Assembly (NCBI GenBank): GCA_944387035.1
Contig: CALXDJ010000064.1
Location: 1-39,319, forward strand
DNA: 39,319 nucleotides
Origin: an uncultured Oscillospiraceae bacterium
Lineage (GTDB): Bacteria; Bacillota; Clostridia; Oscillospirales; Oscillospiraceae
Direction of reading: 5' to 3'
Translations under genes and position numbers: made by a program
Part shown: piece after piece, positions 12,287 to 37,285 of the stretch
Numbering within the stretch: the stretch's first letter is position 1
How the letters are laid out: each line of letters opens with the position of its first letter
Notes under the pieces: model-generated
What the model saw: the letters and a program-made list of their open reading frames with translations, nothing else
Told to the model about the DNA's origin: nothing
Database searches by the model: none

Positions 12287-12576
12287 GAGAGAATTACACA
12301 GTCGCAGTCACAGATGAGCGATGTGCCAAAATCACGGCGGCAAAAGGGATAATGCAGCATTTTGACGAAAAAAGCCTGGAAAATCTCAGAGTGATTTTGG
12401 AATAAAATCCAACCAAAAACGCGGTTTTTTTACAAAAAATATACAGTATCCCGAGAGGATTTGTGTTAAAATATTTCCAAATAATGAGTTGTACGGGAAC
12501 GTCTTCCGACACTGGACTCCACGATCAAGAAAGTGGCATTCCGGCCCGCCGCGCGTTCCCCGGAAGGAGTGTGGAT

Positions 12577-15500
12577 ATGGCACAGACAGGTTCAAATCTT
12601 TTGCGGCTGGGCGTGGATGTTGGCTCTACCACAGTGAAAACAGTGGTGCTGGACCCCACAACCAACGATGTGTTGTTTACCCGCTATCAGCGGCACAATG
12701 CGCACCAGGCAGACACCGTCCGGCAGCTTTTGGAGGAAGCTGCCGGGCGGTTTCCCGATGCGCGGTTTCGGGTAGGTGTCTGCGGTTCCGGCGGCCGTCC
12801 CATTGCCACGGTTCTGGGAGCACATTACGTGCAGGAAGTTGTGGCCAATGCTGCGGCAATCCGGGCCGTATATCCGCAGGTCCGCACAGCTGTAGAGTTG
12901 GGCGGCCAGGATGCCAAGGTAATCTTTTTCCATTATGATGAGTCTACGGGTAAGCTCCAGACTTCTGATATGCGGATGAACGGCAGCTGCGCCGGCGGTA
13001 CCGGCGCCTTTATTGATGAGATCGCCGCGCTTTTGAGCGTGCCGGCTGATGAATTTGAACAGCTGGCTGCGCAGGGAAAGACTGTTTACAGCATCTCCGG
13101 CCGGTGCGGCGTGTTTGCCAAGACGGATATTCAGCCGCTTTTGATTCAAGGTGCGGAACGGGCGGACATTGCCCTGTCGACCTTCCATGCCATTGCCAAG
13201 CAGACCATCGGCGGATTGTCCCAGGGATTGGAGCTGACGGCTCCCATTATTTTTGAGGGCGGTCCCCTGACCTTTAACCCCACATTGGTAAAGGTGTTTG
13301 CCCAGCGGCTGGGACTGCGGGAAGAGGAGATTATCCGTCCGGAGCATCCCGAGACCATTGTGGCCCGGGGAACTGCGATTGCCCTGGATGAGCTGTTCCC
13401 TGGTGAGAAGGATAGCATGACGCTGTCTCAGGCGCTGGAGCGGCTGGCGGCTGCGCCGGCGCAGCCGCAGGAGTCCGCAGGAACCGGAAAACCCTACTTT
13501 TCCAGTGCGGAGGAGCGGGATGCGTTTTTACGGCGCCATCAATCGCAGCTGCGCAGCCCGGTGGATGCCACAGACCGGAAGGTGCTGCGGGGATATCTGG
13601 GCATTGATTCCGGGTCCACGACCTCCAAGTTCGTCTTCATGGATGAGCAGGAGCAGGTGACGGATACCTTCTATGCCAACAACCAGGGCGAGCCGCTGCG
13701 GGTGGTGCGCCAGGGCCTTCTGGCCCTGGCGGAGAAATACCGCAAGCTGGGAATCCAGCTGGAAGTGCTGGGACTGGGGACCACCGGCTACGGAGAACAA
13801 ATGCTCTCCCAGGCATTCCACGCGGATTATCACACCGTGGAGACCGTCGCCCATGCGCGGGGCTGCCGCCGGTTCTTCCCCGATGCGACCTTCCTGCTGG
13901 ATATCGGCGGACAGGATATGAAAGCCATCTGGCTCAAGGACGGCGTGGTCACCAATATCATGCTCAATGAAGCGTGCTCTTCCGGCTGCGGCTCTTTCCT
14001 GGAGAATTTTGCTTCTACTTTGGGAATGCCGGTGGATCAGGTGGCAGATGCCGCATTCCGGTCCCAGGCTCCTGCGGAGCTGGGCAGCCGGTGCACGGTG
14101 TTTATGAACAGCACCATCATCAACGAACAGCGCAACGGCAAGCAGCCCGATGACCTCATGGCGGGACTGTGCCGGTCCATCATCGAAAATGTCTTTACCA
14201 AGGTGGTGCGCATTGCCAATGTCTCCGAGCTGGGAGATACCGTGGTGGTCCAGGGCGGCACGTTCCGGAATTTTGCCGTGCTGCGTGCCCTGGAGGAGTA
14301 TCTGGGCCGGGAAGTGACCCTGGCTCCCTATCCCGGCGAGATGGGCGCCCTGGGGGCGGCTCTGGCAGTCAAGCAGGAGGTGGAGGCCCACGGCTATGCC
14401 AACGGCCGCTGCTCGTCCTTCATCGGCTTTGACGCTGTGGAGCAGTTCCGGTATGTCCGGGAGAGCGGCGTGGTGTGTCCTCACTGCGCCAACCATTGCA
14501 GCCGCACGATTCTGCGCTTCCCGGACGGGGGATGCTATGTAACCGGAAACCGCTGTGACCGGGGAGCCGTGGTGACGGAGGATGCTGCCGCAGCGGTCAA
14601 GCCCGCTCCGGTACCGGATCTGTTCCACCTGCGTCAGGAGCTGCTGTTTAAGAAGTATCCGGTCTCCCCGGTGCGGGAGAATCAGAAACAGACGGTGGGC
14701 CTTCCCCGGGTGCTGGAATTTTGGGACAGCATGCCGTTCTGGAGCACCTTCTTCCGGGCCCTGGGCTATGAGGTGTGCTACTCCCATCCCAGCAGCCGCA
14801 AGCAGTATGAAAGCGGATTGCAATATGTGGCGTCGGATACCATCTGTTTCCCGGCCAAGCTGGTCCACGGCCATGTGCTGGACCTTGCCAAGCAGGGGGT
14901 AGACCGGATCTTCCTGCCCTACATCCTTCATATGCCTACGGAAAACCAAAAGGAGAAGAGTCCTTACGTTTGCCCGGTCATCATGGGCTATTCCATGGTG
15001 GTGCGGAACTTCCAGGACCCGGAGGAGCATTTTTCCGTGGCGTTTGAGACGCCGGTGTTCCACTGGTTTACGGAGCAGGACCGCAAGCGGCAGATCTGCC
15101 AGTACGCCATGGAGCACTGCGGCGCCACCAAGCGCCAGGCTGAAGAGGCCTTCCGCCAGGGAGCGGCGGTGATCGAGGCCTTCCGCCGCCGTCTGGTGGA
15201 GGAGGGAACGCAGGTCATTGCCCAGACGCACAAGAACGGCGGCTTTGCCGTGGTGCTGGCTGGACGGCCGTACCATACCGATCCCCTTATCAACCATGAC
15301 CTGTCCCGCATGTTCACCCGCCGGGGCATCCCGGTTTTGACGGTGGACAGTCTGCCGGGACTTCCGGAGGCGGATCTGCATCAGTCCCGGGTGGAGATCA
15401 CCAACGACTTCCATGCCCGGATGCTCTCCGGCGCTATGGTGACGGCGCAGCAGCCCGCTTTGGAGTATGTGCAGATTGTGAGCTTTGGCTGCGGCCATGA

Positions 15501-16995
15501 CGCCATTTTGTCCGATGAGATCATCCGCCTGCTGGGCGAGGGCAGCGGAAAGCCGCCTCTGATTTTGAAGATGGACGAGAGTGAGGCGGCGGGATCCCTG
15601 GGCATCCGGGTGCAGTCCTTCATCGAGACGGTGGAGCTGCGCCGGGCCGCACAGGCGGAGAAGGCCGCCCAGCCGGACCATCTGCCGGAGCCCTATCCCG
15701 TCAAATACCGGAAGGCGGACCGAAAGCTGCGGACCGTGCTGGTACCCAATATCTCCGCGCCGGTATCCACCTTGCTCTCGGCCCTGCTGGACCGGGAGGG
15801 AATCCGGGCCCAGGCGCTGCCGGTAGGCGGTCCTGAGCAGATCCGGGTGGGCAAGAAGTATACCCATAACGACATCTGCTTTCCCTGCCAGATGGTCATT
15901 GGTGAATTGATCGACGCATTGCAGAAGGGGCATTACCCCGAGGGCTCCGTGGCCGTGGGCATGGCCAAGCTCAGCTGCGACTGCCGCATGGCCAATTATA
16001 CGGCGATCCTCCGCAAAGCGCTGGACAGCGCAGGGTTTGCCGATGTCCCCATTCTCACCACGGATCCCGGAGACACCAAGGGGATTCACCCCGGAGTCTC
16101 CATGCTGGGGGCCCGGTCTGTGCTGCTGGCGGCATGGGCGTTTTCCATGCTGGATATTTTGGAGGATCTGTGCCGGAAAATCCGTCCCTACGAGACGGTG
16201 GCGGGAGAGACGAACCGGGTCTTCCAAGCCTGCATCGAGGATATTGCCGCAGGCTCCAAGGAAGGCCTGCGGAAGATGATTGCGGCGTTCCGCCGCTCCA
16301 TCAATGCCTTCCGGGAGCTCCACTGGGACCGCTCAGTCCGCAAGCCCCGGGTATTGGTGACGGGCGAGCTGCTGGTGACCTATCATCCCGGTACCAACTT
16401 CCATGTGGAAGAGTATCTGGAGCGCAACGGTATGGAGACGGTTCTGCCCCGGATTACTTATCAGTTCCGCAAGGACTTCCAGGCGGCCATCAGTGAAATC
16501 CGGGACTTTGGGGCCCATCTGGCGCCTTATCCCTTTGCACTGGACAGCGCAGTGGAGGGAATCCAGCGCTATCTGGAGCGGATTGCCCAGGCCCACCCGC
16601 TTTATCAAAAAGCGGCGCGGCCCCAGGAGCTGTATGATACGGTACGTACCATCATTCCCAAGACGCTGACCTGCGGTGAGGGCTGGCTGATGGCCGGTGA
16701 AATTGCCCATTATGCCGCCCAGGGAGTTCGGTCGTTCATCATTCTTCAGCCCTTTGGATGCCTGCCCAACCATGTGTGCGGCCGGGGCGTAACCAAGCGT
16801 TTGAAGGAATGGTTCCCCGGGGTACAGATTCTGCCCCTGGACCTGGACCCTGACACCAGCTATGCCAACGTGGAAAACCGGCTGCAAATGCTGATTATGA
16901 ATCAGACGGCCGAGGCCATGCCTGCCCAGACGGAGGAGTCGGCTTATCGCAAGCCCCGCAGCAGTTATCAGCATCCGGCACTGTCTTCTACATAA
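12577..16995 (+). CDS. Two-lobed 2-hydroxyacyl-CoA dehydratase activase (BcrAD/BadFG ATPase fusion with DUF2229), 1472 aa
   Basis: Activases of this family use ATP to push a low-potential electron into 2-hydroxyacyl-CoA dehydratases or benzoyl-CoA-reductase-like enzymes. Two ASKHA ATPase copies are seen: one starting GVDVGSTT (12-19), one starting near LGIDSGSTT (about 341-349). Each has GGQD and a pair of conserved cysteines spaced 39 residues apart: C138 (NGSCAGGTG) and C177 (GRCGVF); C467 (NEACSSGCG) and C506 (SRCTVF). From about residue 650 follows a DUF2229 region with CPHCANHC, then HgdB-like domains to the end. The ATG at 12577 has GGAAGGAGT upstream. The gene stands alone with no dehydratase subunits adjacent. 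The very long antisense frames here are shadows. Family certain; the reaction it supports is unknown. Confidence 0.9.
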   Translation: MAQTGSNLLRLGVDVGSTTVKTVVLDPTTNDVLFTRYQRHNAHQADTVRQLLEEAAGRFPDARFRVGVCGSGGRPIATVLGAHYVQEVVANAAAIRAVYPQVRTAVELGGQDAKVIFFHYDESTGKLQTSDMRMNGSCAGGTGAFIDEIAALLSVPADEFEQLAAQGKTVYSISGRCGVFAKTDIQPLLIQGAERADIALSTFHAIAKQTIGGLSQGLELTAPIIFEGGPLTFNPTLVKVFAQRLGLREEEIIRPEHPETIVARGTAIALDELFPGEKDSMTLSQALERLAAAPAQPQESAGTGKPYFSSAEERDAFLRRHQSQLRSPVDATDRKVLRGYLGIDSGSTTSKFVFMDEQEQVTDTFYANNQGEPLRVVRQGLLALAEKYRKLGIQLEVLGLGTTGYGEQMLSQAFHADYHTVETVAHARGCRRFFPDATFLLDIGGQDMKAIWLKDGVVTNIMLNEACSSGCGSFLENFASTLGMPVDQVADAAFRSQAPAELGSRCTVFMNSTIINEQRNGKQPDDLMAGLCRSIIENVFTKVVRIANVSELGDTVVVQGGTFRNFAVLRALEEYLGREVTLAPYPGEMGALGAALAVKQEVEAHGYANGRCSSFIGFDAVEQFRYVRESGVVCPHCANHCSRTILRFPDGGCYVTGNRCDRGAVVTEDAAAAVKPAPVPDLFHLRQELLFKKYPVSPVRENQKQTVGLPRVLEFWDSMPFWSTFFRALGYEVCYSHPSSRKQYESGLQYVASDTICFPAKLVHGHVLDLAKQGVDRIFLPYILHMPTENQKEKSPYVCPVIMGYSMVVRNFQDPEEHFSVAFETPVFHWFTEQDRKRQICQYAMEHCGATKRQAEEAFRQGAAVIEAFRRRLVEEGTQVIAQTHKNGGFAVVLAGRPYHTDPLINHDLSRMFTRRGIPVLTVDSLPGLPEADLHQSRVEITNDFHARMLSGAMVTAQQPALEYVQIVSFGCGHDAILSDEIIRLLGEGSGKPPLILKMDESEAAGSLGIRVQSFIETVELRRAAQAEKAAQPDHLPEPYPVKYRKADRKLRTVLVPNISAPVSTLLSALLDREGIRAQALPVGGPEQIRVGKKYTHNDICFPCQMVIGELIDALQKGHYPEGSVAVGMAKLSCDCRMANYTAILRKALDSAGFADVPILTTDPGDTKGIHPGVSMLGARSVLLAAWAFSMLDILEDLCRKIRPYETVAGETNRVFQACIEDIAAGSKEGLRKMIAAFRRSINAFRELHWDRSVRKPRVLVTGELLVTYHPGTNFHVEEYLERNGMETVLPRITYQFRKDFQAAISEIRDFGAHLAPYPFALDSAVEGIQRYLERIAQAHPLYQKAARPQELYDTVRTIIPKTLTCGEGWLMAGEIAHYAAQGVRSFIILQPFGCLPNHVCGRGVTKRLKEWFPGVQILPLDLDPDTSYANVENRLQMLIMNQTAEAMPAQTEESAYRKPRSSYQHPALSST

Positions 16996-21642: not shown

Positions 21643-21999
21643 TTATTCTCCGCACTCCCCGGCGTGCTGATGCTCATGGCAGATGGAGCCGGTGGACTCC
21701 AGTTCGCCCCGCAGATAGGCTTCCACGGCGGCACGGGCGTCGCCCTGAGCGCCTACGATGACCTCTACATTGCGCTCGTTGAAGATCTCCACAGCGCCGC
21801 CGCCCATTCCGCCGGCGATGATGGCCTCCACGCCGCGGTCGGCCAGGAAGTTGGGCAGGAAGCCGGGACGGTGACCGGGATTGGGAACCCGCTCCTCACC
21901 AGTGACGGCACCGTCGGCGGTGTCAAAAATCAGAAAGTCCTCACAATGGCCGAAATGGCCGGAAACCGTGTTTCCCATAGCAGCAACAGCAATTTTCAT
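21643..21999 (-). CDS. NifX/NifB-like dinitrogenase iron-molybdenum cofactor family protein with Cys/His tail
   Basis: A 118-aa protein. The ATG at 21999 has AAAAAGGAGTG upstream. It begins MKIAVAAMGNTVSGHFGHCE, the GHFGHC motif of the dinitrogenase iron-molybdenum cofactor (NifX/NafY/orange-protein) family, continues with HRPGFLPNFL and ends in IIAGGMGGGAVEIFNERNVE and a glycine-rich core. Family members bind iron-sulfur or molybdenum-containing clusters. After the domain there is a short tail with CHEHQHAGEC, which looks able to bind metal. It is the last gene of the operon, 60 bases after the second MinD-type ATPase gene. No nitrogenase genes are present, so the cluster it carries is likely not for nitrogenase. 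Confidence 0.88.
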   Translation of the reverse strand: MKIAVAAMGNTVSGHFGHCEDFLIFDTADGAVTGEERVPNPGHRPGFLPNFLADRGVEAIIAGGMGGGAVEIFNERNVEVIVGAQGDARAAVEAYLRGELESTGSICHEHQHAGECGE

Positions 22000-22059
22000 G
22001 ATCGTACACTCCTTTTTATGTTGCACCGGCGGAATCGGCCGCCGGTATGAATGGACAGG

Positions 22060-22926
22060 TTATGGGGATGCAAGCAGACGCATGGTGGACGCATAGACCT
22101 GGCGCAGGGCGCAGGAAGCCGGGCAGTCCACTTCTGCCAGAGAGCGGCCCTGGTTGATGGCCTCTCCTGCGGCGGGATCGTAGGGGATCCGGCCGGTAAA
22201 GGGAATTTCCCGGGCGTGACAAAATGCTTCAATGGCGGCGGTGTTTTCCGGGCTGGTGTCCCACTTGTTGACGCACACGGCCAGCTGGGTCTGAAGCGTG
22301 GAGGCGGTGGTCACCAGCCGCTCCAGGTCATGCAGGCCGGATACTGAGGGTTCCGCTACCACCAGAACCAGGTCCATGCCGCTGACGGAGGAGATAACGG
22401 GGCAGCCAATGCCGGGAGAACCGTCAATGATGGCGACGTCCGTCTCCGGCGCATGCTGGAACAGCGCCAGCTTTACCGCGGTGACCAGCTTGCCGGAATT
22501 GCCACGGCCCATACGCAGCTCCGCGGTGGAGAACACCCGATCCCCGGAATAGAGCCGCTGCTGGCCTGCCTCGTCTGCTGTCAAAGTCACCGCCCCGGCA
22601 GGGCAGGTCAGGGCGCATACGCCGCAGCCTTCACAGGCATAGTCCACGACCTGGAAGGCATTGGCTTCCTGCGTGATGGCGTGAAACCGGCAGGCCTGGG
22701 CACAAGCGCCGCAGCGGGTACACAGGGCCGGATCAATCTGCGCTTTCTCACCGCCCCAAAAGGTTGTGGACTGCGGCGGAGTATCCGGCTGGAGAATCAG
22801 ATGCAGATTGGGGGCGTCCACATCGCAGTCCGCTGCGGCCCGGGTGTTGGAGAATGCGGCAAAAGCCGCTGCGGTGGTGGTTTTTCCTGTACCGCCCTTG
22901 CCGCTTAAAATCAACAGACGCTTCAT
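22060..22926 (-). CDS. MinD-type P-loop ATPase with inserted double [4Fe-4S] ferredoxin domain (second copy)
   Basis: A 288-aa protein. The deviant Walker A motif is KGGTGKTT (residues 9-16), then DCDVDAPN. Between about residues 60 and 115 there is a ferredoxin insert with two clusters: CTRCGACAQACRFHAI and CEGCGVCALTCPAGAV. The Walker-B-like region is IIDGSPGIGCPVISS, followed by VLVVAEPSVSGLHDLERL. This is COG1149-type architecture. Such ATPases are found in gene clusters for NifX-like metal-cluster proteins and probably help insert or transfer clusters. The ATG overlaps the stop of the previous gene (ATGA), so translation is coupled. It shares the same architecture with its neighbour but is clearly diverged, so the two may form a heterodimer. 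Confidence 0.9.
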   Translation of the reverse strand: MKRLLILSGKGGTGKTTTAAAFAAFSNTRAAADCDVDAPNLHLILQPDTPPQSTTFWGGEKAQIDPALCTRCGACAQACRFHAITQEANAFQVVDYACEGCGVCALTCPAGAVTLTADEAGQQRLYSGDRVFSTAELRMGRGNSGKLVTAVKLALFQHAPETDVAIIDGSPGIGCPVISSVSGMDLVLVVAEPSVSGLHDLERLVTTASTLQTQLAVCVNKWDTSPENTAAIEAFCHAREIPFTGRIPYDPAAGEAINQGRSLAEVDCPASCALRQVYASTMRLLASP

Positions 22927-23759
22927 GTGTACCACCCCGCAATTCGATTCAACAGTGTGGAAAATAGCTGGGAAGCTGCCGGAACGGTTTCACAGGCGAC
23001 TTCCCCCCGGGCGGTTTGCTGCGCCAGCTGCGGCTGATAGGGGATCCGGCCCAGGATGGGCAAATTCCGGTCACGGCAGAAGGCTTCCAACGGTGCATAT
23101 GGCTCCGTTTCCTTATTGATGACCACGCCGCAGGGTTTGCCCAGCAGGGTGACCAGCCGGTAGACCATGTCCAGATTGTGCAGGCCGAAGGCAGTGGGTT
23201 CCGCCACCAGCAGGCAGCGGTCGGCTGCTGCCGCACTCTCCAGAACCGGACAGGCGCTGCCGGGCGGGCAGTCGATCACAGTGAGGGGAGCGTCATTCCC
23301 GCCTTGCGCCAAGGCGGCCCGGATCACCGGAACGCCGGAGGCCTCGCCGGGATTGAGAATCCCGGTAATCACCCGGACGCCGCCCCGGCGCCCTTGCTCC
23401 AGGGTTCCGATGGGATGGGGGACCTCCCGGACGGCATCATGGGGACAGACCATGGAGCAGGCGCCGCAGGCGTGACAGACCTCGGGAAAGACCATGGGGC
23501 GTTCCTTGAGATAGACCAGTGCGTGGAACCGGCAGGCGTTGATACATGCCCGGCAGCCATTGCACCGGGATGTGTCAAATTCCGGCAGAAGGGTGGAAAC
23601 AGGGGTGACGGTTTCTATTTCCGGTTTGAGAAACAGCTGCCCGTTGGGCTCCTCCACATCGCAGTCGATGTAAACCGCCTGCTTGGCGGTGACCGCCAGA
23701 TTGACTGCCACCAAGGTTTTTCCGGCACCGCCCTTGCCGCTTAAAACTGCCAGCTTCAT
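22923..23759 (-). CDS. MinD-type P-loop ATPase with inserted double [4Fe-4S] ferredoxin domain (first copy)
   Basis: A 278-aa protein beginning MKLAVLSGKGGAGKTLVAVN, with Walker A KGGAGKT at residues 9-15, then IDCDVEEPNG. The ferredoxin insert carries CNGCRACINACRFHAL and CHACGACSMVCPHDAV (two [4Fe-4S] sites). The nucleotide-binding end includes VIDCPPGSACPVLES and LLVAEPTAFGLHNLDMV. It is homologous to the next gene and to the paired MinD-like ATPases of orange-protein clusters in sulfate reducers. Its start overlaps the upstream NifX-like stop by four bases and its stop overlaps the next start by four bases. An upstream extension of the frame (to 23912) is antisense-like and rejected. Confidence 0.9.
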   Translation of the reverse strand: MKLAVLSGKGGAGKTLVAVNLAVTAKQAVYIDCDVEEPNGQLFLKPEIETVTPVSTLLPEFDTSRCNGCRACINACRFHALVYLKERPMVFPEVCHACGACSMVCPHDAVREVPHPIGTLEQGRRGGVRVITGILNPGEASGVPVIRAALAQGGNDAPLTVIDCPPGSACPVLESAAAADRCLLVAEPTAFGLHNLDMVYRLVTLLGKPCGVVINKETEPYAPLEAFCRDRNLPILGRIPYQPQLAQQTARGEVACETVPAASQLFSTLLNRIAGWYT

Positions 23760-24115
23760 CCCGAAATCCCGTGAAAGCCCGCGTGGAAGTGGGTCAGCTC
23801 CGGCAGCTTGTCCATTGCCAGAGCAGCGAGATTTGCCGCGGCGTCGCCTTCCAGCGCCTTGCGGATGGAGATTCCGGCTGCCTGGAATACCTTGGCGGCG
23901 TTCTCCCCACAACGGACCGTGATGAGCACCTCGGCGCCGCTGTCTACCACAAACTGGGCGGCCTGGAGGCCTGCGCCGCTGTCTGCCTGGGCGGCGGGAT
24001 TCTCCAGACTGCGGCTTTCACCGGTCACGGTATCATGCAGCAGAAAAAACGGCGCCCGGGCAAAGGACGGGCAGACGCTGCGCTGGTCTTCATCCAGCGG
24101 AAGCATGATTTTCAT
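23756..24115 (-). CDS. NifX-like dinitrogenase iron-molybdenum cofactor family protein
   Basis: A 119-aa protein, the first of two NifX-like members of the operon. It begins MKIMLPLDEDQRSVCPSFAR, then FFLLHDTVTGESRSLENPA and AAQFVVDSGAEVLITVRCGE with NAAKVFQAAGI. This is the usual fold of the iron-molybdenum cofactor-binding family, but the GHFGHC motif of the last gene is replaced by CPSFARAPFF, so its cluster may be ligated differently. It ends with a His-containing tail (HFHAGFHG). Overlaps of four bases (ATGA) occur at both ends, with the DUF134 gene and with the MinD-type gene. Confidence 0.85.
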   Translation of the reverse strand: MKIMLPLDEDQRSVCPSFARAPFFLLHDTVTGESRSLENPAAQADSGAGLQAAQFVVDSGAEVLITVRCGENAAKVFQAAGISIRKALEGDAAANLAALAMDKLPELTHFHAGFHGISG

Positions 24116-24495
24116 ATGGCATGTTCCTCCTCTTGTTGTTGTGTATCAGGACGGCACCGGTGACGGCGGCAGCCGCCGCATCCGCAGGTGGATTCCTGCC
24201 CGTCGCACAGGCGGTAATCCCCGCCTTCAATCCGCAGGGGGCGGCCGTCCACCAGGACCAGGGCCAGCTTTTTCCGTGCGGAGGTGTAGATCTGCTGCAC
24301 TGTGGTGCGTGCCACATGCATGTATGCGCTGCACTCCTCCTGGGAGAAGCCTTCTTTGTCAATCAGGCGGATGGATTCGTATTCATCCACCGTCAGGACC
24401 ACCGCCTGGGCTGCCGGCTGGATTCCGCAGGCCGGGACAAACTCGCTGATCTTGGGAAGACAGCAGACCTTTCGGCATTTTCTGGGACGGGGCAT
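24112..24495 (-). CDS. DUF134-family DNA-binding protein
   Basis: A 127-aa protein starting MPRPRKCRKVCCLPKISEFV, the signature start of DUF134, followed by a helix-turn-helix of sigma-70 region-4 style: LTVDEYESIRLIDKEGFSQE, ECSAYMHVARTTVQQIYTSA, RKKLALVLVDGRPLRI. The C-terminus is cysteine-rich (STCGCGGCRRHRC), suggesting metal or cluster binding. DUF134 proteins are poorly studied but occur with NifX/MinD operons. The ATG at 24495 has GGAGG upstream; the longer frame would run through the promoter. It is the first gene of the five-gene operon, and two palindromic sites flank its promoter, so it is a candidate autoregulator. Confidence 0.88.
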   Translation of the reverse strand: MPRPRKCRKVCCLPKISEFVPACGIQPAAQAVVLTVDEYESIRLIDKEGFSQEECSAYMHVARTTVQQIYTSARKKLALVLVDGRPLRIEGGDYRLCDGQESTCGCGGCRRHRCRPDTQQQEEEHAI

Positions 24496-24528: not shown

Positions 24529-24581
24529 TTGACATATGCCAGATTCAGGTTCAGCATACACCTGTTTTTGGCATATGTCAA
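24529..24581 (-). promoter_or_regulatory. Promoter of the DUF134/NifX/MinD operon with two palindromic operator sites
   Basis: On the minus strand TTGACA (24581-24576), a 17-base spacer and TATGCT (24558-24553). TTGACATATGCCA (24529-24541) and TGGCATATGTCAA (24569-24581) are perfect inverted repeats 27 bases apart. Each is itself nearly palindromic around CATATG. One site covers the -35; the other lies just past the start site, before the ATG at 24495. Confidence 0.8.
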
Positions 24582-26354: not shown

Positions 26355-26372
26355 TATACCCCTATGGGTATA
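26355..26372. promoter_or_regulatory. CsoR-type operator at the ATPase start site
   Basis: TATACCCCTATGGGTATA has 7-bp perfect inverted arms (TATACCC/GGGTATA) and sits directly after the -10. It matches the GC-tract plus flanking AT-half style of CsoR-type operators. Confidence 0.8.
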
Positions 26373-26384
26373 AAGGAGGGCGTT

Positions 26385-28286
26385 ATGGAGAAACTGGAAC
26401 GTGTGTTGGCGTGGGGAGGCATCCGGCGGGATGTGGCATTTCTGGTTATTTCGGGTGCGGCACTGCTGCTTAGTATTGTTCGGGTGGAGCTGCTGCCCTT
26501 TGATCCGGCATGGATTGCCATCGTTTTTTGCGGAATTCCCATTGTGCTGGAAGCAGTAATTGGTTTGGTGACGGCCTTTGACATCAAGGCGGATGTGCTG
26601 GTTTCCATCGCTTTGGTGGCTTCGGTGGTGATCGGGGAGACCTTTGCCGCCGGAGAGGTGGCCTTTATTATGCAGCTGGGCGCGCTGCTGGAGGAGCTGA
26701 CCGTGGCCCGTGCCCGGGCAGGAATTGAGCGGCTGGTACATCTGACACCACAGACAGCCCGGGTGCTTGCCGAAGGGGAGGAACGGGTGATCCCTGCTGA
26801 AAAGGTACAGGTGGGAGATCTGCTGCGGGTGCTGCCCGGTGAGACCGTACCGGTGGACGGGGTGATTCGGACCGGACAGACTTCCATCAATCAGGCGGTG
26901 ATGACCGGGGAGTCCATGCCGGTGGACAAAGGACCGGGGGATCCGGTGTCCAGCGGAACGGTGAACCAATTTGGTTCCTTTGACATGGAAGCAGTGAAGG
27001 TGGGAGAGGACAGCTCTATCCAGAGGATGATCCGGCTGGTGCAGTCGGCAGACGCCGGGAAGGCCCGGATTGTCGGAATTGCGGACCGGTGGGCCACCTG
27101 GATCGTGGTGATCGCCCTGAGTGCGGCGGCTTTGACATGGCTGGTGACGGGACAGATCATTCGGGCAGTGACCATCCTGGTGGTGTTTTGCCCCTGTGCG
27201 CTGGTGCTGGCCACGCCAACGGCCATTATGGCTGCCATCGGAAACGCAACCCATCACGGATTTCTGGTCCGGGAGGGGGATGCCCTGGAGCGGCTGGCGG
27301 ATGTCGCCCGGGTGACCTTTGATAAAACCGGAACCCTGACCCAGGGGACGCCACGGGTGACGGCAGTGGAAAGCGGACTGCCCCAAGTGGATGCGCAGAC
27401 GCTGTACGGTTGGACTGCCGCGGCGGAAGGCCGTTCGGAGCATCCTGTCGGGCGGGCCATTGCTGCCTGCTACCGGGAGAGTACCGGAGAGACGCTGAAA
27501 AAAGCAGAGAACTTTACTATGCTGCCGGGCAGGGGCGTACAGGCCCAGGTGGAGGGGCGGCAGATTACGGCCGGGAATGCAGCCTTGCTTCAGGATTTGG
27601 GGATTCCCCTGCCGGAGTGGATGCGCCAAAAGGCACAGTACCATCTGGAGCGGGGATGTACAGTCATCTATCTGGCGGTGGATGGGCAGGCCGCCGGGAT
27701 TGCGGCGCTTTCCGATACCCCGCGTCCGGAGGCGGCCGAAACGGTGCAGGCGCTGCGCCTGTCCGGCGTGGAACCGGTGCTGCTGACTGGAGATCATGAG
27801 CGGGCGGCCTTGCAGGTGGCGGAGCAGATGGGGATTCAAGAGGTGCGGGCAGGCTGTCTGCCGGAGGATAAGCTTGCGTATATCCGGAGCTGTGAACAGG
27901 CAGGGCAATCGGTGTGTATGATTGGGGACGGGATTAACGATGCACCGGCATTAAAGACCGCCCATGTGGGGATTGCCATGGGCGGCGTGGGCAGTGACAT
28001 TGCGGTGGACGCGGCGGATATTGTGCTCATCAACGATGAGATTCGGGAGCTGCCGCATTTGTTCCGGATCTCCCGGCGGATGATGCGGACGATCCGGTAT
28101 AACCTGACCTTCTCCATGGGACTGAATGCTGTGGCCATTGTGCTGGCTATGACCGGCATTTTAAATCCGGTAGTCGGTGCTTTGGTCCATAATGCGGGGT
28201 CGGTGTTTGTCATCGCCAATTCCGCCCTTTTGTTGCGCTGGGGCGGGAAAAACCGAGCGGGCGGTGCGCCGACGGAACACAGGTGA
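26385..28286 (+). CDS. Heavy-metal P-type ATPase without N-terminal metal-binding domain
   Basis: A 633-aa P1B-ATPase that should export a metal ion across the membrane, using ATP. AAAGGAGG precedes the ATG at 26385. The protein starts directly with membrane helices; no CxxC heavy-metal-associated domain is present. Visible motifs: TGES in the actuator domain (MTGESMPVDK), CPC at residues 269-271 in the transport helix, phosphorylated D313 in DKTGTLT, SEHPVG and GDGINDAP near 514. The last membrane helices read NPVVGALVHNAGSVFVIANS. That HN-plus-N arrangement differs from the K/D pattern of Zn/Cd pumps and from the CopA pattern, and recalls CtpC-like pumps. Specificity is therefore open. It is controlled by CsoR through the operator upstream; a terminator follows. 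Confidence 0.9.
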   Translation: MEKLERVLAWGGIRRDVAFLVISGAALLLSIVRVELLPFDPAWIAIVFCGIPIVLEAVIGLVTAFDIKADVLVSIALVASVVIGETFAAGEVAFIMQLGALLEELTVARARAGIERLVHLTPQTARVLAEGEERVIPAEKVQVGDLLRVLPGETVPVDGVIRTGQTSINQAVMTGESMPVDKGPGDPVSSGTVNQFGSFDMEAVKVGEDSSIQRMIRLVQSADAGKARIVGIADRWATWIVVIALSAAALTWLVTGQIIRAVTILVVFCPCALVLATPTAIMAAIGNATHHGFLVREGDALERLADVARVTFDKTGTLTQGTPRVTAVESGLPQVDAQTLYGWTAAAEGRSEHPVGRAIAACYRESTGETLKKAENFTMLPGRGVQAQVEGRQITAGNAALLQDLGIPLPEWMRQKAQYHLERGCTVIYLAVDGQAAGIAALSDTPRPEAAETVQALRLSGVEPVLLTGDHERAALQVAEQMGIQEVRAGCLPEDKLAYIRSCEQAGQSVCMIGDGINDAPALKTAHVGIAMGGVGSDIAVDAADIVLINDEIRELPHLFRISRRMMRTIRYNLTFSMGLNAVAIVLAMTGILNPVVGALVHNAGSVFVIANSALLLRWGGKNRAGGAPTEHR

Positions 28287-28553: not shown

Positions 28554-29198
28554 ATGGGAGTGACTGTTTTGAAGAAAGAGAACATTTCCGACGCCGTGAT
28601 CCGGCGCCTGCCCAGATATTACCGCCAGCTGACGGATCTTTGTGCCAGGGGGGTTGTGCGGATTTCATCGCATTCCCTGGGACAGGAAATGAATATTACG
28701 GCCTCGCAGATCCGGCAGGATTTCAGCTGCTTCGGGGAATTCGGACAGCAGGGATATGGTTATAACGTTGAGGAGCTGCGGGCGGAAATCGGCCATATTC
28801 TGGGTGTGGACAATGACCACCACCTGATTATGATCGGCGTAGGCAATCTGGGACATGCGCTGCTGCAAAACTTCCGCTTTTCTCAGACTGGCTTCTCCGT
28901 CGACGCTGCGTTTGATATTTCTCCCACGGTGGTGGGAACCACGGTCAATGGTGTGCCGATCTATGCCATGGCGGATTTGGATAGTTATATTCGGGAACAC
29001 AGCGTGGATGTGGTGGTGCTGACGGTGCCGCAGTCTGTGGCCCAGGAGACGGCTGACCGGATCATCCGGCTGGGCGTGCGGGGCTTCTGGAACTTTACCA
29101 ATGTGGAGCTGGTGAGCAGTGATCCCGATGTGAAGTTTGAGAACATTCATTTTGCCGACAGTTTGCTGACACTCAGTTATCGGATTGCCAATCGCTGA
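28554..29198 (+). CDS. rex: Redox-sensing transcriptional repressor Rex
   Basis: A 214-aa protein that senses the NADH/NAD+ ratio and represses fermentation or respiration genes. The N-terminal winged helix is seen (SDAVIRRLPRYYRQLTDLCA, then MNITASQIRQDFSCFGEFG), then a Rossmann domain with IMIGVGNLGHALLQNF near residue 92 (GxGxxG-type NADH-binding turn) and a C-terminal domain-swap helix (FADSLLTLSYRIANR). The start is uncertain: the ATG at 28554 has only a weak upstream site, while the TTG at 28569 (LKKENISDAV) matches the usual Rex start and has GGGAG upstream. It likely regulates itself through the overlapping site. Monocistronic, or co-transcribed with the following SLH gene 40 bases away. 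Confidence 0.93.
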   Translation: MGVTVLKKENISDAVIRRLPRYYRQLTDLCARGVVRISSHSLGQEMNITASQIRQDFSCFGEFGQQGYGYNVEELRAEIGHILGVDNDHHLIMIGVGNLGHALLQNFRFSQTGFSVDAAFDISPTVVGTTVNGVPIYAMADLDSYIREHSVDVVVLTVPQSVAQETADRIIRLGVRGFWNFTNVELVSSDPDVKFENIHFADSLLTLSYRIANR

Positions 29199-34870: not shown

Positions 34871-37117
34871 TCATAGTTTGGTCCGCCCCAGCCGCAGGGC
34901 GTTGCCCACCACGCACACGGAACTCAGCGACATGGCGGCACCGGCAAACATGGGGGAGAGCAGGGGACCGCCGAAGAGGTAAAGCGCGCCGGCGGCAATG
35001 GGAATGCCAATGGTGTTGTAGCAAAATGCCCAGAACAGATTTTCCTTAATGTTGCGCAGGGTTTTGGCAGACAGGCGCAGAGCCCGGGGAACGTCCTGCA
35101 GATCATCACGCATCAGCACAATGTCTGCGGATTCGATGGCAATGTCGCTGCCGCTGCCGATGGCGCAGCCCACTTCTGCCTGGGTCAGGGCGGGGGCATC
35201 GTTGATACCGTCCCCTACCATCATCACCTTGCGGCCCTGCGCCTGCAGCTTCTGGATGACACCGGCCTTCTCCTCCGGCAAGACCTGAGCAATGACCTCG
35301 TCCACCCCGACCAAAGCACCGATATGCTGCGCGGCTGCCTGAGAATCACCGGTGAGCAGGACTGTGCGGATACCCGCTGCCTTCATCTGCCGGATGGCTT
35401 CGGCGCTGGTGGCCTTGACCGGGTCCGCCACGGAGATCAGCCCCAGCAGCTGGCCATCCAGGGCGAAGAACATCGGGGTTTCGCCCTGCGCGGCCAGACG
35501 ATGTGCCTGCTCCAGCAGGGGAGAGGGGTCTACGCCGCCTTCTTCCAGCAGCCGCTGATTCCCGGCCAGGACCTCCCGGCCGTTCAATCGGGCCCGCAGT
35601 CCCCGTCCGGAGAGGGTTTCAAAGCTCTCGGGCCGGTGGGGGGCAGCGACGCCATGTTCAGCCGTGTAGGCGGTGATGGCTTTGGCCAGAGGATGGGCGG
35701 AGACGGATTCCACCGCAGCGGCGGTTTCCAGCAGGATTTGGGAATCGGCCAGGGCAGTGATCTCGGTTACGGCCGGTTCACCCTGCGTGACCGTGCCGGT
35801 TTTGTCCAGTACAACCGTATCCACACTATGGGTGATTTCCAGAATTTCTCCGGAGCGGATCAAAATACCGTGCCGGGCACCCAGACCGGTACCCACCATG
35901 ATGGCGGTGGGGGTAGCCAGCCCCAGTGCGCAGGGGCAGGCGATGACCAGGACGGAGGTAAACACCCGCAGTACGAAGGAGAAGGGCTGTCCGGCCAGGG
36001 CCCAGGCAATGGCGCACACCAGGGCAATGGTGATGACGGTGGGAACAAAGACACCGGCCACCTTATCCGCTGTTTTGGAGATGGGGGCCTTTTTCCCCTG
36101 GGCATCCTCCACGAAACGGATGATGCGGGAGAGGGTGGAGTCCGCTCCGGTGCGGGTGACTTCCACATACAGCACGCCGCTGAGGTTGACGCTGCCGCCG
36201 ATGACCTCGCTGCCGGCTTCTTTTTCCACCGGCAAACTCTCGCCGGTGAGCATGGCCTCGTTGACACTGCTTTCTCCGCCGGTTACGATGCCGTCGGCGG
36301 GAATCCGGGCGCCGGGTTTGACCAGAACGCGGTCTCCGGTTTTTAAATCTTTGGAGGGAATTTCCCGCCCGGAATCGGCCAGAATGGCGGTGTCCGGCGC
36401 CAGGCGCATCAGGGCGGTGATGGCGCCTTTGGTTTTCTGCATGTTCCGGCTCTCCAGGAACTTGCCCAGAGACACCAGGGTCAGCACCACGGCGGCAGAT
36501 TCATAATAAAGGTTATGCACATAGGTGTGGGGGTCGTCGGAGATCAGGAAGGTCATCACCACACTGTATGCAAAGGAACAGGCAGAGCCGATGGCCACCA
36601 GGGAATCCATGTTGGGATTGCCGTGAAAGAGTGCCTTGAAGCCGCCGGTAAAGAAGTGACGGCCGCAGTAGAGAACCGGAATGGCCAAGAGCAGCTGCAG
36701 CAGGGCGAAATTGACCGGGTGGGTGTGCATGGACACGATGTCCGGCAAGGGCAGGGCAGGCAGTCCAAAGGGCAGCATCTGCCCCATGGACACATACAGC
36801 AATGCCACGGAGAATACGGCGGCCGTGATCAGTTCCCGCTTTTTCTGCCGCAGCTCCTGTTCCGCAGTATCCGCGGCCTCCTGGGGGACAGCGGCCGGTT
36901 CGTCGCTTTGGAGTGTGGCTCCAAAGCCCGCCTTCTCCACTTTGGCCACAATTTGTTCCGGTGTGACCTGGGATTCATCATAGCAGATCGTCATCACACC
37001 GGTGGTGAGATTGACGTCGCTGCGCTCTACGCCCGGCAGACGCCGGGTGACTTTTTCCACCGACGCACTGCACGCTGCGCAGTGCATGCCGGAGATGTCA
37101 TATCGTTCTTCCCGCAT
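34871..37117 (-). CDS. copA: Copper-exporting P-type ATPase CopA
   Basis: A 748-aa protein. The ATG at 37117 has AGGAGG four bases before it; the longer upstream frame is not a real start. An N-terminal heavy-metal domain has the CxxC motif C13-A-A-C16 (GMHCAACSAS). Eight membrane helices follow, then the CPC motif at residues 394-396 (CPCALGLATPTAIM), the phosphorylated D438 in DKTGTVTQG, and GDGINDAPAL later. The last membrane segments, YNTIGIPIAAGALY and MFAGAAMSLSSVCVVGNALR, have the Y-N and M-x2-S-S pattern of Cu(I) pumps (P1B-1). It exports Cu(I). It is the first gene of the operon with csoR and copZ. Confidence 0.97.
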   Translation of the reverse strand: MREERYDISGMHCAACSASVEKVTRRLPGVERSDVNLTTGVMTICYDESQVTPEQIVAKVEKAGFGATLQSDEPAAVPQEAADTAEQELRQKKRELITAAVFSVALLYVSMGQMLPFGLPALPLPDIVSMHTHPVNFALLQLLLAIPVLYCGRHFFTGGFKALFHGNPNMDSLVAIGSACSFAYSVVMTFLISDDPHTYVHNLYYESAAVVLTLVSLGKFLESRNMQKTKGAITALMRLAPDTAILADSGREIPSKDLKTGDRVLVKPGARIPADGIVTGGESSVNEAMLTGESLPVEKEAGSEVIGGSVNLSGVLYVEVTRTGADSTLSRIIRFVEDAQGKKAPISKTADKVAGVFVPTVITIALVCAIAWALAGQPFSFVLRVFTSVLVIACPCALGLATPTAIMVGTGLGARHGILIRSGEILEITHSVDTVVLDKTGTVTQGEPAVTEITALADSQILLETAAAVESVSAHPLAKAITAYTAEHGVAAPHRPESFETLSGRGLRARLNGREVLAGNQRLLEEGGVDPSPLLEQAHRLAAQGETPMFFALDGQLLGLISVADPVKATSAEAIRQMKAAGIRTVLLTGDSQAAAQHIGALVGVDEVIAQVLPEEKAGVIQKLQAQGRKVMMVGDGINDAPALTQAEVGCAIGSGSDIAIESADIVLMRDDLQDVPRALRLSAKTLRNIKENLFWAFCYNTIGIPIAAGALYLFGGPLLSPMFAGAAMSLSSVCVVGNALRLGRTKL

Positions 37118-37138
37118 AATGCCTCCTGTTCTCCCAAG

Positions 37139-37155
37139 ATACCTTGGGGGGGTAT
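37139..37155. promoter_or_regulatory. Degenerate second CsoR-like site
   Basis: ATACCTTGGGGGGGTAT has the same 17-base length as the main site but only 5-bp arms. Its centre is 35 bases from the main operator's centre. Confidence 0.4.
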
Positions 37156-37168
37156 TGATCTGAGAGAC

Positions 37169-37197
37169 ACTATATACCCCTGTGGGGTATTTGTCAA
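37169..37197 (-). promoter_or_regulatory. copA promoter with CsoR operator inside the spacer
   Basis: On the minus strand TTGACA (37197-37192), a 17-base spacer and TATAGT (37174-37169). The operator ATACCCCTGTGGGGTAT (37174-37190), with perfect 7-bp arms, fills the spacer, so bound repressor would block the polymerase directly. Confidence 0.88.
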
Positions 37198-37257
37198 GGG
37201 GGAGCAGAAAGGGATTGCTTTCTGCCTCAAAGAGGTGAGAAAAATAAGGAAAATCCC

Positions 37258-37285
37258 TTGACTTCCAGGGGAAGTATGATATCAT
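37258..37285 (+). promoter_or_regulatory. Promoter of the ammonia-lyase gene
   Basis: TTGACT (37258-37263), a 16-base spacer and TATCAT (37280-37285), 56 bases before the ATG. It is divergent from the copA promoter. Confidence 0.65.

What the first reader, a model, noticed from the sequence alone, without database searches (positions are those of the whole stretch)
21643..24495. Five-gene DUF134 / NifX / MinD-ferredoxin ×2 / NifX operon, an orange-protein-like metal-cluster system
Four-base ATGA overlaps link the first four genes. The set matches the kind of neighbourhood known for the orange-protein (ORP) clusters in sulfate reducers: two MinD-like ATPases with ferredoxin inserts plus NifX-like cluster carriers. 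Here the first gene is a Cys-rich DUF134 regulator with its own two-site promoter, one NifX-like protein lacks the GHFGHC motif, and the last NifX-like protein carries an extra CHEHQHAGEC tail. No nitrogenase genes are present. Inference: the two ATPases form a heterodimer that loads an unusual Fe/Mo/Cu-type cluster onto one or both NifX proteins, and DUF134 senses a metal or cluster state.
Basis: partly seen in the sequence, partly recalled or inferred. Interest (0 to 1): 0.75.

Follow-up and report, generated by a model that had tools for sequence, protein, structure and literature searches.

The report
Metal-cluster operon with its own switch
A five-gene bacterial operon resembling the sulfate reducers' "orange protein" metal-cluster system is preceded by a conserved paired DNA site that its first gene, from a family of unknown function, very probably binds to switch the operon off.

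Summary
In detail: DUF134 / NifXa / MinD-ferredoxin x2 / NifXb lie on the minus strand, ATGA overlaps at the first three junctions, a sigma-70 promoter before, a terminator after. NifXa-MinD1-MinD2-NifXb stand in this order in 72 of 80 fetched relatives.

New: the palindrome TGRCATATGYCA occurs exactly only twice in the 2.26 Mb genome, both in this promoter. It lies upstream of the operon in 70 of 80 relatives, 128 sites in 60 kb against 12 in 786 kb elsewhere. In 65 of these 70 one copy coincides with the -35 box, which is repressor geometry. In a class sample the paired site tracks DUF134 genes (40 of 47 genomes; 35 of 54 sites within 1.5 kb), also outside this operon. DUF134's recognition helix differs between genes with and without the site (Tyr70 96/97 versus 22/41).

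NifXa, not NifXb, is the ORP-like protein and is fused to DUF134 in 13 of 80 loci; no other junction of the five genes is. I infer a DUF134-NifXa autorepressor of an ORP-type operon, NifXa being the sensor. Ligand unknown.

The parts
24569..24580 (-). operator copy M (TGACATATGCCA on the minus strand), overlapping the -35 box
   Evidence: conserved in relatives
24553..24581 (-). sigma-70 promoter TTGACA-17-TATGCT; start of transcription expected near 24546 (inference)
   Evidence: 10 of 12 matches
24530..24541 (-). operator copy D (TGGCATATGTCA on the minus strand), 39 bp downstream of copy M, near +11
24112..24495 (-). DUF134 (UPF0251) DNA-binding regulator, 127 aa
   Evidence: 78.9 bits; sigma-70 region-4-like HTH, weak matches; conserved Cys 11, 55, 97, 104, 109
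23756..24115 (-). NifXa, ORP-like NifX-fold protein, 119 aa; fused to DUF134 in 13 of 80 relatives
22923..23759 (-). MinD1, MinD-type ATPase with inserted 2x[4Fe-4S] ferredoxin domain, 278 aa
22060..22926 (-). MinD2, second MinD-type ATPase with inserted 2x[4Fe-4S] ferredoxin domain, 288 aa, 37% identical to MinD1
21643..21999 (-). NifXb, NifX-like protein with HFGHCE motif and CHxHxHxxxC tail, 118 aa
21588..21623 (-). intrinsic-terminator-like hairpin closing the operon (-25.4 kcal/mol, z -6.0); only four T follow, so the consensus scan did not list it

Best explanation
This is an ORP-type iron-sulfur or heterometal cluster operon that carries its own repressor. DUF134 is a sigma-region-4-like helix-turn-helix protein that binds the palindrome TGRCATATGYCA. 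Two copies of this site cover the -35 box and the start of transcription, so a bound regulator would block RNA polymerase. NifXa, which is fused to DUF134 in many relatives and is nearest to the ORP fold, most likely acts as the regulator's sensing half: its conserved C15/C69/H111/H115, perhaps with DUF134's own cysteines, would bind the cluster or metal that the operon handles and change DNA binding. MinD1/MinD2 (counterparts of Orp3/Orp4) and NifXb (counterpart of the NifX-like domain of MrpORP) would make or use the cluster. Shown computationally: gene content, conserved operator and its promoter geometry, association of operator with DUF134, recurrent fusion. Inferred: DUF134 is the binder, repression, NifXa as sensor, the products' function. 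Unknown: the ligand.
For: Operator: exact copies in G000 only at this promoter, 2 of 2; 70 of 80 relatives have at least 1 site (one mismatch allowed) and 54 at least 2; 128 sites in 60,285 bp upstream against 12 in 786,207 bp elsewhere; permuted palindromes hit 0.2 of 80 loci on average, at most 3. In 65 of the 70 one copy gives a -35 box with a -10 box 16-19 bp on (9 or more of 12). Part of TTGACA is in the motif itself, but the -10 is independent: 5 of 6 or better in 58 of 70, against 0-25 of 70 at 14 shifted positions, the highest being shifts that fall on the true -10 as seen from a downstream copy. DUF134 as binder: paired site in 47 of 291 class genomes (reversed pattern 6); 40 of the 47 have DUF134 against 86 of the other 244 (Fisher p 3e-10); 35 of 54 paired sites lie within 1.5 kb of a DUF134 gene, including stand-alone DUF134-NifX units; helix residues Tyr70 96/97 v 22/41, Thr64 82/97 v 14/41, Arg68 5/97 v 21/41; in rows fetched neither by MinD1 nor by the motif Tyr70 16/16 v 14/30. 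Of the 23 loci without DUF134 just upstream, 19 genomes were searched and 17 have DUF134 elsewhere, 16 over the cut-off. Sensor: 15 DUF134-NifX fusions in the 80 loci (13 with NifXa), none at other junctions of the five genes; at least 5 changes of the fused state on the tree; AF2 model HTH + low-confidence linker + NifX fold.
Against: No binding, expression or metal data. The operator could belong to another factor: its TGA-N6-TCA core geometry resembles CRP/FNR sites (recalled), and a CRP-type gene (Pfam HTH_Crp_2 in 4 of 4 scanned) is found in 8 of 80 loci, divergent and just upstream of the operon in 7. 10 of 80 loci have no site, several of them with DUF134. L062 has a good site pair but only a sub-threshold DUF134 match in its genome (21.9 bits), and L058 has one site and no DUF134. 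14 DUF134 rows have Tyr70 and Thr64 but no site in the stretch searched; for L120, L128 and L129 the site lies further upstream, for others it was not found. The helix statistics ignore relatedness. 19 of 54 paired sites have no DUF134 within 1.5 kb. The fused state is no more clustered on the tree than in 78 of 500 shuffles, and that tree's bootstrap had not settled. NifXa might be a carrier fused for stoichiometry only.
Confidence: 0.62

Rival explanations
1. One reading: both NifX proteins are cluster carriers loaded by a MinD1-MinD2 heterodimer, and DUF134 alone is the sensor.
For: MrpORP work (PMC6345978, passages, Discussion) reports that Orp3 co-purifies with Orp4 and Orp8 and that the apo-complex receives Fe-S clusters. 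DUF134 itself has conserved Cys 11, 55, 97, 104, 109. NifXb keeps HFGHCE and the Cys/His tail.
Against: NifXa is repeatedly fused to DUF134, and stand-alone DUF134-NifX units with the same operator exist with no ATPase match in the stretch held.
Confidence: 0.25
2. The conserved palindrome is the site of a CRP/FNR-family or other global regulator, and DUF134 has another role.
For: TGA-N6-TCA core like CRP/FNR sites (recalled). A CRP-type gene in 8 of 80 loci, divergent and just upstream in 7.
Against: In the 30 fetched paired-site loci (about 3 kb each) no match to this CRP-type protein appears, and only 2 weak ones (28 bits) in L174-L185, while DUF134 lies within 1.5 kb of 35 of 54 sites. The exact site is confined to one promoter in G000. 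The DUF134 recognition helix differs with presence of the site. Other CRP/FNR families were not searched for.
Confidence: 0.06
3. DUF134 activates rather than represses this promoter.
For: The upstream copy 21-23 bp before the -35 copy in 19 of 65 loci could be an activator position.
Against: 65 of 70 loci have a copy over a near-consensus -35 box, and 38 of these 65 have a copy 30-45 bp further down, near the start of transcription. Strong consensus promoters rarely need activators (general knowledge).
Confidence: 0.1
4. The MinD pair positions cell structures (septum or poles) as proposed for the Desulfovibrio ORP complex, and cluster handling is secondary.
For: ORP proteins are described as putatively involved in septum positioning (PMC3897727, passages). 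MinD-type ATPases.
Against: Two complete 4Fe-4S motifs are conserved in each ATPase. Patchy presence, 4 of 60 relatives including the own genome, fits an accessory rather than a core cell-division role.
Confidence: 0.1

Closest known systems
ORP (orange protein) complex of Desulfovibrio (Orp3, Orp4, Orp8, Orp9/MrpORP, Orp5)
   Same: Two MinD-like ATPases with ferredoxin domains (as Orp3/Orp4), an ORP-like NifX-fold protein (NifXa; 2wfb E 4.6e-10), and a MrpORP-type NifX-like domain (NifXb, 106 bits). Mrp, in L079 and L080 fused to NifXb, is in the operon in some relatives.
   Different: The Mrp ATPase is not in this operon (a Mrp gene is elsewhere, G000:C55). None of the five genes is an Orp5 counterpart (not searched for elsewhere). 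NifXa has conserved Cys that the aligned ORP stretch lacks. The promoter is sigma-70 type with the proposed DUF134 operator, instead of sigma-54 with DVU2106 (PMC3897727, passages). No Desulfovibrio Orp3/Orp4 sequence was compared directly.
MrpORP (NCBIfam NF041136)
   Same: NifXb matches its C-terminal NifX-like domain (model positions 265-365). Relatives L079 and L080 carry Mrp-NifXb fusions.
   Different: The P-loop domain is absent here. Score 106 bits against a 450-bit cut-off for the whole protein.
DUF134 / UPF0251 (PF02001)
   Same: Full-domain match, 78.9 bits.
   Different: A family without described function; no paper describing an operator or a sensing role was seen in the listings.
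NifX/NafY nitrogenase cofactor carriers
   Same: Same fold: the NifXa half of the L024 model matches NifX in the NifEN complex (9ian) and NafY (1p90).
   Different: No PF00148 nitrogenase-type protein found in the genome.

Membership tests
ORP complex | Two MinD-like ATPases, each with two [4Fe-4S] ferredoxin motifs | tested here: met
ORP complex | Single-domain ORP (Orp8) NifX-fold protein | tested here: met
   NifXa to 2wfb E 4.6e-10; Foldseek E 4.2e-7, TM 0.83 to the target for the fused relative L024
ORP complex | Mrp/NBP35 ATPase (Orp9) encoded in the cluster | tested here: not met
   Not in the window operon; one strong Mrp gene elsewhere; present in the operon in relatives such as L080, L082
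ORP complex | sigma-54 promoter and DVU2106-type activator | tested here: not met
   sigma-70-type promoter with the proposed DUF134 operator instead; presence of sigma-54 in the genome not tested
ORP complex | Proteins co-purify; Mo-Cu cluster on ORP | not testable with these tools
   needs protein chemistry
MrpORP | P-loop NTPase fused to a NifX-like domain | tested here: not met
   NifXb has the second domain only
DUF134 (PF02001) | Profile match over the curated cut-off | tested here: met
   78.9 against 27 bits
DUF134 repressor with TGRCATATGYCA operator (proposed here) | Paired operator over the promoter of its own operon | tested here: met
DUF134 repressor with TGRCATATGYCA operator (proposed here) | Direct DNA binding and repression | not testable with these tools
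   gel shift and reporter needed
CRP/FNR regulon | CRP/FNR gene linked to the operator | tested here: not met
   the one CRP-type protein tested: 0 of 30 paired-site loci, 8 of 80 operon loci, against DUF134 at 35 of 54 sites
Nitrogenase cofactor pathway | Nitrogenase or NifEN genes in the genome | tested here: not met
   PF00148: no match

The most novel reading that the evidence does not exclude
DUF134 is a new class of transcription factor that senses a metal cluster through a NifX-fold domain, fused in cis or encoded next to it, and represses ORP-type operons at a TGRCATATGYCA palindrome. To my knowledge it would be the first regulator to use the nitrogenase-cofactor-carrier fold as its sensor, and would give a direct handle on which cluster the ORP system makes.
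Probability: 0.45. Interest if true: 0.85.

Novelty: new variant of a known kind. Interest (0 to 1): 0.72.

Why it matters
What the cluster of ORP-type systems is for is unsettled. This work gives DUF134, a family without described function in the papers searched and present in 126 of 291 genomes of the window's class, a concrete operator, a likely mode of action and a probable sensor partner. An operator-reporter could then show which metal, redox state or cluster the system responds to, which has been hard to approach from the purified proteins.

Tried and rejected
MoeA_N (PF03453) as a marker of molybdenum use: not found in G000 and found in 48 of 291 class genomes. I first took this to argue against Mo; contig C22 then showed MoaA, MoaC-MOSC, a MoaB/MogA-like protein, a further MoCF_biosynth protein, YqeB and ModABC-like genes (ModC under its cut-off), so the marker misled. 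The tables (32 of 48 MoeA_N genomes have DUF134; paired site with MoeA_N not associated, p 0.39) are not used.

CRP/FNR as reader of the palindrome: considered because of site geometry and a neighbouring gene, set aside on linkage.

Wider regulon in the own genome: besides the 2 exact sites one search lists 21 sites with one mismatch, against 12 for the reversed pattern, so no other target is claimed.

19 of 54 paired sites have no DUF134 gene within 1.5 kb (the list of DUF134 matches was cut off). One (G168, L133) stands before DUF5320 and one (G052, L182) before a NifXb-like gene; the others, judged by eye, mostly lack a -10-like spacer and may be chance.

In the Foldseek list retroviral integrase chains (E 0.025 and weaker, most at rmsd over 12) rank above the sigma region 4 chains (E 0.1-0.2); I take the former as a poor whole-length overlay of the NifX half and draw nothing from them. 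MinD2 against solved chains gave only ferredoxin-domain and MinD/ParA-type matches.

Full-text searches for DUF134, UPF0251, COG1342, PF02001, IPR002852, PRK04217 and three spellings of the palindrome listed 22, 2 and 1 papers and no description of an operator. Only listings and single passages were seen; subscription papers are mostly not held. on ORP and NifX/MinD likewise: listings, with PMC6345978 and PMC3897727 opened in part.
Full report
What is there. On the minus strand at 24495-21643 lie DUF134, NifXa, MinD1, MinD2 and NifXb. DUF134/NifXa, NifXa/MinD1 and MinD1/MinD2 overlap by ATGA; NifXb follows after 60 bp and is closed by a strong hairpin at 21623-21588 (z -6.0). The next gene, a MarR-type regulator, has a promoter-like sequence of its own (TTGACT-16-TATAAT). 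The genome G000 (2.26 Mb, 96% complete) has one DUF134 gene, two PF02579 proteins and one MinD-ferredoxin pair, all here; other matches to MinD2 are weak and ferredoxin-sized.

Conservation of the set. A scan with MinD1 found 494 relatives, of which the best 80 were kept. MinD2 follows MinD1 in 80 of 80, NifXa precedes in 79 and NifXb follows in 72; all four in 72. Of the eight others, L014, L049, L064, L066, L077 and L083 have little sequence held downstream; in L035 and L065 NifXb was simply not found. DUF134 is a gene of its own within 1.4 kb upstream in 44 loci (in L038 joined to a NifXb-like domain), fused to NifXa in 13, and absent from that stretch in 23. Some operons, mostly more distant ones, add a metallo-beta-lactamase-fold gene (13 of 80 loci), Mrp (10) or DUF5320 (9) by BLAST clusters, families named from scanned members. 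In L079 and L080 Mrp is fused to NifXb, the MrpORP arrangement. Among 60 relatives of the window's genome, G000 included, 4 have a MinD1 at E 1e-30 or better: the operon is patchy.

The operator. The promoter lies inside an inverted repeat made of two copies of the near-palindrome TGRCATATGYCA. Exact copies in G000: only these two. In the 80 relatives, allowing one mismatch, 70 have at least one copy and 54 at least two in the region from 550 bp before to 240 bp after the start of the first core frame: 128 copies in 60,285 bp, against 12 in 786,207 bp of the rest. Permuted palindromes of the same make-up hit 0.2 loci on average, at most 3. Flanking positions are also conserved, giving about RTWAWTGRCATATGYCRWWWAY. 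In 65 of the 70 loci one copy gives a -35 box whose -10 box lies 16-19 bp on, 9 or more of 12 matching; a second copy lies 30-45 bp downstream in 34, about 22 bp upstream in 15, both in 4, none in 12. TGACA is part of the motif, so the -35 match is partly built in. The -10 box is not: 5 of 6 or better in 58 of 70, against 0-25 of 70 when the scan is shifted; the highest shifted counts, at -30 and -40, are where the true -10 falls as seen from a downstream copy. Such placement blocks polymerase, so I infer repression. Ten loci have no copy: L016, L028, L038, L043, L060, L078, L079, L084, L086, L087 (L038 holds under 60 bp upstream, and L016 has two copies with two mismatches).

DUF134 as the reader of the site. 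Of the 23 loci without DUF134 just upstream, 19 genomes were searched (not those of L076-L079): 17 have DUF134 elsewhere, 16 over the cut-off. The exceptions are L058 (one site) and L084 (no site). L062 has a site pair but only a sub-threshold DUF134 (21.9 bits), which counts against. In 291 class genomes the paired site occurs in 47 (reversed pattern: 6); 40 of the 47 have DUF134, against 86 of the other 244. Of 54 paired sites 35 have a DUF134 gene within 1.5 kb. Several are DUF134-NifX units with no ATPase match in the stretch held (L142, L177, L178, L180, L183, L184). Of 139 distinct DUF134 proteins 97 have a site (one mismatch) within 600 bp upstream or 240 bp into the frame, 41 do not and 1 could not be classed. 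The recognition helix differs: Tyr70 96/97 v 22/41, Thr64 82/97 v 14/41, Arg68 5/97 v 21/41. In rows fetched neither by MinD1 nor by the motif, Tyr70 is 16/16 v 14/30. These counts are not corrected for relatedness. A CRP-type gene (Pfam) found in 8 of 80 operon loci has no match in the 30 fetched paired-site loci.

NifXa as sensing partner. In the 80 loci 15 open frames combine DUF134 with a NifX domain (13 with NifXa), and no frame joins NifX to MinD; for MinD1-MinD2 only frame length was tested, and the one frame over 450 aa (L063, 480 aa) is an extended MinD2. NifXa/MinD1 and MinD1/MinD2 are just as tightly overlapped (62 of 79 and 61 of 80 end in a four-base overlap). On a MinD1 tree the fused state needs 11 changes, at least 5 by well-supported branches; gains and losses cannot be told apart, and the bootstrap had not settled. 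An AlphaFold2 model of the L024 fusion (16 sequences, mean pLDDT 77.5, pTM 0.50) shows a helix-turn-helix domain, a linker under pLDDT 50 (97-124) and a NifX fold. Foldseek matches the second half to solved NifX-fold proteins including ORP 2wfb, and the first to sigma region 4 domains only at E 0.1-0.2. NifXa's nearest solved relatives by sequence are 1rdu, 1eo1 and 2wfb; NifXb's are 1t3v, 1o13 and 2yx6, and 2wfb is not listed for it at E up to 1. NifXa has conserved C15, C69, H111, H115; NifXb has HFGHCE and a conserved CHxHxH...C tail. DUF134 has conserved C11, C55, C97, C104, C109 (tail alignment less sure).

Comparison with the literature. The ORP complex and MrpORP are described in PMC6345978 (passages, Discussion) and the sigma-54/DVU2106 control of orp in PMC3897727 (passages). 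The window operon works like an ORP system in its core parts but lacks Mrp in cis and sigma-54-type control; it is best called an ORP-type operon with a different regulator. Searches for DUF134 under its various names listed no paper that describes an operator or a sensing role; most listed papers were not opened.

Molybdenum. The MoeA_N family was not found in G000, but MoaA, MoaC, other cofactor genes and a ModABC-like transporter are present, so a Mo-containing cluster remains possible. No PF00148 nitrogenase-type protein was found.

Verdict. The gene set is a real, conserved ORP-type operon; the operator and its link to DUF134 are the strongest new result. Approximate confidence by step (judgement): DUF134 binds the site 0.88; repression 0.8; ORP-type function of the products 0.7; NifXa as sensor 0.55; cluster identity open.

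Noticed in passing
window 34871-37285 (-) and 26364-28286 (+): Two heavy-metal P-type ATPases lie on the upstream side of the operon, about 10 and 2 kb away. The first has an HMA domain and scores 597.7 bits on the copper-translocating model (cut-off 397); the second passes both the cadmium-family (473.4) and copper (441.5) models.
   Followed up: partly
window 28554-29198 (+): Redox-sensing repressor Rex, 268.7 bits, about 4 kb from the operon.
   Followed up: no
window 12463-16995 (+): 1510-aa frame with BadF/BcrA-type activase domains and DUF2229, likely a 2-hydroxyacyl-CoA dehydratase activator (name recalled); a weak IS110 transposase match at its start may be chance.
   Followed up: no
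L202 (G000:C22): Molybdenum cofactor genes (MoaA, MoaC-MOSC, MoaB/MogA-like, YqeB, XdhC-like) with a ModABC-like transporter, although no MoeA_N domain was found in the genome.
   Followed up: partly
L026, L034, L046, L053, L088 and others: Rubredoxin/rubrerythrin-type genes occur in 8 of 80 operon loci, in several beside the operon (cluster 6); families confirmed by Pfam in L034, L046 and L053 only. A link to oxygen stress is possible.
   Followed up: no
L061 and L088: One chromosome (Anaerotignum sp. MB30-C6) carries two different copies of the operon, one with DUF134 beside it and one without, both with operator copies.
   Followed up: no
L204 and L206 (G328): A genome of the window's own genus carries two forms of the operon, a short one and a long one with DUF5320, MBL and Mrp, both with operator copies. 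Its contig has the same length (959,256) as that of Oscillibacter ruminantium GH1, so it is probably that species (inference).
   Followed up: partly
L142, L177, L178, L180, L183, L184: DUF134-NifX units, fused or adjacent, with the same paired operator and no ATPase match in the stretch held.
   Followed up: partly
upstream regions of L014-L093: Partner copies of the operator fall in two positions relative to the -35 copy, about 22 bp upstream or about 39 bp downstream; why lineages differ is unexplained.
   Followed up: no
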